From the NCBI GenBank assembly GCA_030267245.1, contig JAJDJN010000002.1, forward strand, positions 1 through 42,712: DNA of 42,712 nucleotides, given 5' to 3'. This document shows, one piece after another, positions 27,327 to 27,854 of this stretch. A program made the position numbers and the translations under genes. The DNA comes from Desulfovibrio sp. OttesenSCG-928-A18. Its GTDB lineage: Bacteria > Desulfobacterota > Desulfovibrionia > Desulfovibrionales > Desulfovibrionaceae. The first letter of the stretch is position 1. Each line of letters begins with the position of its first letter. Below the pieces are notes generated by a model. It saw nothing but the letters and a program-made list of their open reading frames with translations, did no database searches and had not been told where the DNA came from.

Positions 27327-27670
27327 ATGACCGCCCCGGAGAAGGAAAACACGCTGTTGACGATGGATGCGGCAAAGGCAATGAAGCTGATGCCGAACAC
27401 CACGGACAGGAGCAGCTTGAAACCGCCGCTGATGTCATCCTTGTTCATTATGAATATGACGCCGCAGAGGGCCATAGCGACAATGGAAATCCATTTACCA
27501 GCCGGGCCGGTGATGGTGTTCACCACCCGTTCCAAGGGACTGGAAAATTCCGTGATGCCGCCCGATGCGGCGGCAATGTCAGGGAAGCAAAGGCAGAGAG
27601 CCAGAAAGCCGAAAACGGCAAAGGAAGAGAAAGGGACTTTACGAGTGGGAAGAAGATTGGTTCCGCGCAT
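27323..27670 (-). CDS. trbC: TrbC/VirB2-like pilin precursor
   Basis: MRGTNLLPTRKVPFSSFAVFGFLALCLCFPDIAAA signal, two TMs; RBS GGAGA before ATG at 27670. Confidence 0.85.
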   Translation of the reverse strand: MRGTNLLPTRKVPFSSFAVFGFLALCLCFPDIAAASGGITEFSSPLERVVNTITGPAGKWISIVAMALCGVIFIMNKDDISGGFKLLLSVVFGISFIAFAASIVNSVFSFSGAVI

Positions 27671-27854
27671 AACGATCTCCGTAGAGGCCGTCATGCGGCG
27701 CGGCGTTGGGGCTTGTAGCCCGCAGGACGATTCTGCTTTTGCAGCGAGGGCAGAAAAGCTCGATTTCTCCAGCTTCTATGCGGCCCTTTGCCAGAAGTTT
27801 GTTGCACTTCCCGCAGCGAAGATTGCCGGGATCATGCGCCTGTTCAGTGTTCAT
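27639..27854 (-). CDS. Com-like (phage Mu Com family) zinc-finger protein, predicted RNA-binding translational regulator
   Basis: LRCGKCNKLLAKGRIEAGEIELFCPRCKSRIVLRATSP: CxxC...CPRC Com-type finger; overlaps trbC start by 32 bp. Confidence 0.75.
   Translation of the reverse strand: MNTEQAHDPGNLRCGKCNKLLAKGRIEAGEIELFCPRCKSRIVLRATSPNAAPHDGLYGDRYARNQSSSHS
27668..27727 (-). promoter_or_regulatory. leader element copy C (5' of trbC/virB2, inside the com-like 3' end)
   Basis: CCTGCGGGCtacaaGCCCCaacgcCGCGCCGCATGACGGCCTC ahead of ATG; two short hairpins. Confidence 0.5.

What the first reader, a model, noticed from the sequence alone, without database searches (positions are those of the whole stretch)
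27639..27727. Com-like zinc-finger gene overlapping the virB2/trbC start: possible Mu-type translational switch controlling a conjugative pilus operon
Seen: a 71-aa protein with a Com-type finger (CGKC...CPRC) is encoded so that its 3' end overlaps the virB2/trbC start by 32 bp. A short GCCG-CATGA-CGGC hairpin sits 16 nt before the virB2 ATG. Established: phage Mu Com is a small zinc-finger protein that binds a hairpin in the overlapping com-mom mRNA and activates mom translation. Inference: the same device has been adopted to control T4SS pilin translation.
Basis: partly seen in the sequence, partly recalled or inferred. Interest (0 to 1): 0.87.

Follow-up and report, generated by a model that had tools for sequence, protein, structure and literature searches.

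The report
Com RNA switch controlling conjugation genes
A small RNA-binding zinc protein, known from phage Mu where it turns on one DNA-modification gene, appears to have been taken over by a family of mobile genetic elements in Desulfovibrio-type bacteria, where one conserved RNA switch sits in front of several separate conjugation genes (pilin, coupling protein, topoisomerase), so that they could be switched on together.

Summary
The 71-aa ORF is a Com-family protein (Pfam PF10122, 36.4 bits against a cut-off of 22.9). It overlaps trbC by 32 bp, between trbB and trbC of a P-type (RK2/Ti-like) T4SS on an integrative element. The order trbB-com-trbC is kept in many divergent Desulfovibrionaceae elements. 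The hairpin is half of a conserved 48-nt tandem-hairpin RNA element. In HP2 the loop is C-N-N-G-A, the bases that Mu Com is known to contact. The same element occurs without any com gene, in intergenic DNA 13-17 nt before the start codons of traG/virD4 and topA (both in this window), and of trbG and others elsewhere. A model trained only on com copies finds the window's topA and traG copies (E 1e-19 and 1e-12). Thirteen com+ elements carry 27 strong copies; 13 com-less sister elements carry none. HP2 is mutually exclusive with a conserved pairing that hides the AUG, and all three stems covary in one traG leader. Best explanation: Com is a trans-acting translational activator of a conjugation regulon, the Mu com-mom device multiplied. 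Direction (activation) is inferred; no wet test was possible.

The parts
27639..27854 (-). com: 71-aa Com-family zinc-ribbon RNA-binding protein
   Evidence: PF10122 36.4 bits vs gathering 22.9; PHROG 6417 E 1.4e-11; 47% identity to Mu Com over 34 aa of the zinc finger
27323..27670 (-). trbC/virB2 pilin, start ATG 27668-27670
   Evidence: PF04956 TrbC 56.6 bits; SD GGAG 27677-27680; the alternative upstream ATG at 27694 is not conserved
27684..27731 (-). cis copy of the tandem-hairpin Com element, inside the com 3' end, ahead of trbC
   Evidence: 63.3 bits with model R1, 63.8 with R2 (this site is in both training sets)
27709..27721 (-). HP1: GGGC-TACAA-GCCC, 19 nt after the last Cys codon, close to where the Mu Com-binding hairpin lies (22 nt)
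27687..27699 (-). HP2: GCCG-CATGA-CGGC, the hairpin named in the finding; C-N-N-G-A loop
27668..27675 (-). start-codon side of the OFF-state stem (TCGTTATG), pairs with the HP2 loop and 3' arm 27688-27695
19112..19170 (-). trans copy of the Com element in the trbI-traG intergenic region (HP1 has one mismatch, HP2 loop enlarged)
   Evidence: 40.6 bits, E 1e-12 with the com-only model R2; intact in near-identical element L091/L185
17061..19097 (-). traG/virD4 coupling protein, target gene
   Evidence: PF02534 365.6 bits
13730..13777 (-). trans copy of the Com element in the intergenic region before topA
   Evidence: 59.8 bits, E 1.4e-19 with the com-only model R2
11907..13712 (-). topA-like DNA topoisomerase (type IA), target gene
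   Evidence: PF01131 352 bits, PF01751 Toprim
27851..28837 (-). trbB/virB11 ATPase, upstream gene, 4-nt overlap with the com start
   Evidence: TIGR02782 373.7 bits, above cut-off
19178..27326 (-). trbD, trbE, trbJ, trbL, trbF, trbG, trbH-like, trbI: the rest of the T4SS operon downstream of trbC
   Evidence: NCBIfam/Pfam TrbD; other assignments from gene order and lengths, conserved in relatives

Best explanation
The element encodes a Com-family RNA-binding protein that works as a trans-acting translational activator of a conjugation regulon. Each target leader carries two tandem small hairpins (HP1, HP2) just upstream of the Shine-Dalgarno. Without Com, the loop and 3' arm of HP2 (CATGACGG) pair instead with the sequence around the start codon (CCGTCATG), and the AUG is buried (OFF). 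With Com, HP1 and HP2 are captured in hairpin form through their C-N-N-G-A-type loops, the OFF stem cannot form and the AUG is free (ON). One copy lies in cis inside the 3' end of com and serves trbC (pilin). Further copies in trans serve traG (coupling protein) and topA here, and trbG and a Dam-type methyltransferase elsewhere. Shown by computation: family identity, conserved synteny, conserved element in cis and trans, covariation, co-occurrence with com, predicted AUG sequestration. Inferred: that this Com binds these RNAs, that binding activates rather than represses, and that the purpose is coordinated expression of pilus, coupling protein and topoisomerase once the T4SS operon is transcribed.
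For: PF10122 above its cut-off and PHROG 6417. trbB-com-trbC order in divergent elements, Com identity 45-100%. A com-only model finds the window's topA and traG leaders at E 1e-19 and 1e-12. 27 copies of at least 42.5 bits in 13 com+ elements, none above 13.4 bits in 13 com-less sister elements. Nearly all trans copies are sense-strand, about 13-17 nt before an SD-equipped start. HP stems 98.5% paired with both-sided changes at 6 of 8 pairs over 80 sites; slid-register controls 4-64%. 41/52 com genes keep a C-N2-3-GA hairpin against 3.8 expected by synonymous shuffling. OFF stem: -3 to -1 = GT[CT] before the AUG in 17/31 leaders of com+ elements against 1/20 com-less; paired cells 89.8% with HP1 included (OFF stem alone 85.8%) against 29-50% for slid registers. 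AUG unpaired 0.13 free, 0.51 with HP1+HP2 forced. The L166 traG leader changes HP1, HP2 and the start flank in concert. Published: Mu Com binds a hairpin loop CC(N)2-3GAG next to a translation-inhibition structure (PMC6483171).
Against: No binding or expression data. HP1 loops in the integrative elements often end GC or AA instead of GA (UACAA in the window's com copy), and the HP2 closing pair is G-C where Mu has C-G, so the published Mu motif is met only in part. The predicted ON state costs about 9 kcal/mol in isolation, so it needs Com binding energy or capture during transcription; forcing it frees the AUG but not the SD, and in the window's own trbC leader it frees the AUG only from 0.01 to 0.09. 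The window's traG copy is degraded, and its AUG is predicted mostly open. Two com+ elements (L186, L187) show only the trbC copy. The OFF stem is less regular at -4 and -5.
Confidence: 0.74

Rival explanations
1. Com binds the same tandem hairpins but represses: it locks a structure beside the SD and blocks ribosomes, so Com is a feedback brake on trbC, traG and topA.
For: HP2 ends about 16 nt before the AUG, so a bound protein could hinder the ribosome; com is read together with trbB, which suits feedback; SD accessibility does not rise when the hairpins are forced.
Against: The conserved OFF stem already hides the AUG and is broken by HP2 formation, which would be pointless under repression; the only characterised relative, Mu Com, is an activator (PMC6483171).
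Confidence: 0.13
2. Plain translational coupling: com is a small operon gene whose overlap lets ribosomes reach trbC; the hairpin only tunes re-initiation and Com has no RNA target.
For: Tight overlaps at both ends of com (4 and 32 bp).
Against: The same 48-nt element sits in intergenic DNA before traG and topA where nothing upstream is translated through it, and is absent from com-less sister elements.
Confidence: 0.04
3. The element is a DNA operator: Com (or another protein) binds the paired inverted repeats in DNA and regulates transcription.
For: Small inverted repeats also covary in DNA operators; some databases describe such small zinc proteins as transcriptional regulators (own knowledge).
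Against: Fixed sense-strand position between an upstream gene and the SD, 13-17 nt from the AUG; conserved asymmetric loops; a second pairing with the start codon that only makes sense in RNA; Mu Com binds RNA (PMC6483171).
Confidence: 0.05
4. The trans copies are relics of recombination that copied the com-trbC leader in front of other genes, with no present function.
For: Copies can resemble com down to its coding frame (L079 has a short com-like reading frame); some are decayed (window traG, L178 30.6 bits).
Against: Stems, loops and the start-codon pairing are kept in many divergent elements and covary, which relics would not show.
Confidence: 0.04

Closest known systems
Phage Mu com-mom translational switch
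   Same: Same protein family; com overlaps its target; Com-type hairpin at a similar distance after the last Cys codon (19 nt here, 22 in Mu); C-N2-3-GA loop; neighbouring structure that hides the start codon and competes with the hairpin.
   Different: Target is a T4SS pilin instead of a DNA-modification enzyme; two tandem hairpins; several unlinked targets in trans; HP2 closing pair G-C; carried by an integrative conjugative element.
com-methyltransferase pairs of other phages (e.g. Pseudomonas phage B3, Burkholderia phage AP3)
   Same: Com overlapping the next gene, hairpins at +19 and +39 to +41 nt.
   Different: Single target adjacent to com in those records; Desulfovibrionaceae phage relatives also show a second trans copy before another methyltransferase (L162, L161, L151).
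P-type (RK2/Ti Trb) conjugation modules
   Same: trbB-C-D-E-J-L-F-G-I order and traK/L/M, traG, traF nearby.
   Different: Insertion of com between trbB and trbC with RNA-level control; this device was not found reported in the papers searched.
Phage coat-protein and ribosomal-protein RNA operators (general knowledge)
   Same: A small protein recognises a short hairpin near a start codon, with mimics elsewhere.
   Different: Those repress; here the architecture points to activation of several genes through mutually exclusive structures.

Membership tests
Com protein family (PF10122) | Profile match above the curated cut-off | tested here: met
   36.4 bits vs 22.9; second copy in the same genome 31.4 bits
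Com protein family (PF10122) | Four-cysteine zinc finger near the N-terminus, tail dispensable for RNA binding | tested here: met
   CGKC...CPRC kept in 17 of the 18 close homologs aligned (one has F for the first Cys); tail role from PMC6483171
Mu-type com-mom switch | com overlaps the start of its target gene | tested here: met
   32-bp overlap here, conserved in most relatives
Mu-type com-mom switch | Com-recognition hairpin, loop CC(N)2-3GAG | tested here: inconclusive
   HP2 loop C-N-N-G-A met; closing pair G-C instead of C-G; HP1 closing pair right but GA often GC or AA in the integrative elements
Mu-type com-mom switch | Translation-inhibition structure hiding the start codon | tested here: met
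   Predicted and covarying; not probed chemically
Mu-type com-mom switch | Target is mom or another DNA-modification gene | tested here: not met
   Targets are trbC, traG, topA
Mu-type com-mom switch | Com binds the RNA and raises translation | not testable with these tools
   Needs EMSA and reporter assays
P-type Trb conjugation system | TrbB equivalog and TrbC, TrbD in trb order | tested here: met
   TIGR02782 above cut-off, TrbC/TrbD matches, order

The most novel reading that the evidence does not exclude
A Com protein commands a multi-gene translational regulon: one 48-nt RNA switch, repeated in cis and in trans, couples synthesis of the pilin, the coupling protein and a topoisomerase in a family of integrative conjugative elements, and phages of the same hosts use the same layout for pairs of DNA methyltransferases.
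Probability: 0.72. Interest if true: 0.88.

Novelty: new variant of a known kind. Interest (0 to 1): 0.85.

Why it matters
Com has been studied for decades as an activator of one phage gene. Here the device is multiplied into a trans-acting regulon and moved to conjugation. Conjugation control is usually described at transcription or by antisense RNA; a protein-dependent RNA switch placed on several transfer genes would give a post-transcriptional gate that makes pilus, coupling protein and topoisomerase together. The natural variants (tandem hairpins, cis and trans copies, com-less sisters) also give material for the unsolved question of how Com recognises RNA and melts the inhibitory structure, and a simple RNA profile that marks Com targets in genomes.

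Tried and rejected
tblastn of the 71-aa Com against plasmid records: no match, so no annotated plasmid context. Rfam scan of the window: only a tRNA, so the element is not a catalogued RNA family. Solved structures: no Com relative by sequence. First guess that the upstream ATG at 27694 starts trbC was dropped (not conserved, no SD). Comparing own with cross-leader duplex energies showed no difference because all leaders share the pairing; the shuffled-flank, com-less and slid-register controls were used instead. The covariation count on A3 leans on a pattern search that fixed part of the stems; pair 4 of HP1, left free, still covaries, as does the model-found set A4, which is however fitted to the structure. 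A6 is a composite with the variable spacer removed. Window model hits of 15 bits and less (14426, 26958) were judged noise. A phylum-wide scan found the element almost only in Desulfovibrionaceae (one hit outside). A Pfam call failed on wrong coordinates and was repeated.

Full report
Observation. The window is one contig (C112) of a genome of the Desulfovibrionaceae type (named relatives are Desulfovibrio). On the minus strand lie traK-, traL- and traM-like genes, trbB, a 71-aa ORF, then trbC, trbD, trbE, trbJ, trbL, trbF, trbG, a trbH-like gene, trbI, traG, a signal-peptidase traF, an ArdC/Toprim protein and a topA-like topoisomerase. A tyrosine integrase (31531-32724) lies next to a tRNA (32743-32816), so this is most likely an integrative conjugative element (inference).

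Family. The ORF matches Pfam PF10122 (Mu-like prophage protein Com) at 36.4 bits against a cut-off of 22.9, while all other zinc ribbons stay below theirs. PHROG 6417 'translational regulator' and PHROG 13819 'gpCom' agree. Identity to Mu Com is 47% over 34 residues of the finger.

Synteny. trbB-com-trbC is found in a second element of the same genome (L002, Com 62% identical) and in many relatives (L018, L020, L027-L029, L078, L082-L088; more distant L052, L058, L064 with Com 45-60%). The overlap with trbC is kept in most. One relative, L030, has com between traL and trbJ and lacks the hairpins.

The RNA element. Aligning the com 3' ends showed two hairpins at constant spacing: HP1 GGGC-N5-GCCC, 19 nt after the last Cys codon, and HP2 GCCG-CNNGA-CGGC, 9 nt further on. 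In Mu the experimentally defined Com site, AUGC-CUGCGA-GCAU, lies 22 nt after the last Cys codon. Published SELEX and SHAPE work finds that Mu-type Com recognises 5'-CC(N)2-3GAG-3' in a hairpin loop, with the GA crucial and the first loop C also protected, next to a translation-inhibition structure containing the mom start (PMC6483171). Over 52 distinct Com-family genes, 41 carry a hairpin with a C-N2-3-GA loop, with 3.8 expected when synonymous codons are shuffled, and the positions are nearly constant. The stem letters change in pairs (GGGC/GCCC, AGGC/GCCT, AGAC/GTCT, GGGA/TCCC, ATGC/GCAT). Com-type hairpins in the com 3' end are therefore common in the family, often in tandem, beyond protein-coding needs.

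Copies in trans. A motif scan then turned up the same element where there is no com gene. In this window one copy is intergenic before topA (13730-13777) and another, partly degraded, intergenic between trbI and traG (19112-19170). A covariance model built only from copies inside com genes (R2) finds both: 59.8 bits, E 1.4e-19, and 40.6 bits, E 1e-12; the next hit has 14.3 bits. Over relatives the trans copies stand before traG (most often), topA, trbG (L079), a Dam-type methyltransferase (L139), and possibly an integrase (L146), nearly all on the sense strand with an SD and a start codon about 13-17 nt downstream (gene families). Phages of the same hosts show com with a C5 methyltransferase in cis and a second methyltransferase with its own copy in trans (L161, L162, L167, L151, L159).

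Negative control. Searching the class with TrbB gave com+ elements and com-less sisters with TrbB 53-70% identical. In about 20 kb from trbB onwards, 13 com+ elements hold 27 copies of at least 42.5 bits (13 in cis, 14 in trans) plus one of 30.6; 13 com-less elements, four of which include traG in the stretch, hold none above 13.4 bits. In the phylum only one genome outside the family has a hit below 1e-6.

Mechanism. Folding the leaders showed that HP2 is not the favoured state: its loop and 3' arm (CATGACGG) pair with the start region (CCGTCATG), burying the AUG. The sequence GT[CT] directly before the start is found in 17 of 31 leaders of com+ elements and 1 of 20 in com-less ones; within com+ elements the exceptions include leaders that lack the element, such as L183, L186 and L187 traG and topA. 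Over 36 leaders HP1 plus the OFF stem pairs in 89.8% of cells (the OFF stem alone 85.8%) against 29-50% for slid registers, and HP1/HP2 pair in 99.0%. In the L166 traG leader HP1 is GGGT/ACCC, HP2 is GCTG/CAGC and the start flank is CTGTCATG, so one change in the HP2 3' arm is matched in both alternative partners. Forcing HP1 and HP2 raises the mean chance that the AUG is unpaired from 0.13 to 0.51, at a predicted cost of about 9 kcal/mol; for the window's trbC leader the gain is small, 0.01 to 0.09. This is the Mu logic in a mutually exclusive form: Com bound to the hairpins should expose the start codon. The energy cost suggests capture of the hairpins as the RNA emerges, before the start codon is made (inference).

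Reading. Com is made with the T4SS operon and would open trbC in cis and traG and topA in trans, so that pilus, coupling protein and topoisomerase appear together (inference). In the com tail of these elements, amino-acid conservation (LRASRPN.APHDGL) may largely be a by-product of RNA conservation, since the same RNA is kept where no Com is encoded (inference).

Limits. No binding or expression was measured. The HP1 loops of the integrative elements depart from the Mu motif, the HP2 closing pair is reversed, the window's own traG copy is decayed, and two com+ elements show only the trbC copy. E-values from the session's models are rough. No report of Com in conjugation was found in the open papers searched, but subscription papers are not held.

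Noticed in passing
window 4024-6844 (-): Complete-looking Gabija defence pair: GajA 5156-6844 (693 bits) and GajB 4024-5190 (462 bits), probably cargo of the element.
   Followed up: partly
window 14159-16378 (-): Protein with ArdC N-terminal, zincin-like and Toprim domains, an anti-restriction/primase-like fusion between traF and topA.
   Followed up: no
window 31531-32816: Tyrosine integrase next to a tRNA gene, a likely attachment site; beyond it host-like genes (sodium/solute symporter, phosphate permease).
   Followed up: no
own genome C13, C223, C283 (L089, L139, L146): Further copies of the Com element: a second com-trbC element and traG on C13; topA and a Dam-type methyltransferase on C223; an integrase-like gene on C283, where the start-codon pairing is weak.
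   Followed up: partly
L155 586-730 and L156 2394-2538: Two Com elements back to back (four hairpins) in elements whose T4SS operon is interrupted by a large insertion; downstream gene not identified.
   Followed up: no
L161, L162, L167, L151, L159: Phage-type loci with com overlapping a C5 methyltransferase and a second Com element before another methyltransferase: Com may control two targets in phages too.
   Followed up: partly
L034, L036, L071 (viral contigs and a Pseudomonas phage-like record): Com genes followed by large proteins that are not methyltransferases, or in a bacteriocin/lysis cassette; com hairpin present.
   Followed up: no
L082 4159-4218, L083 4262-4321, window 19112-19170: HP2 loops enlarged by 11-12 nt insertions that keep the 4-bp stem, so the stem may matter more than the loop length in some copies.
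   Followed up: no
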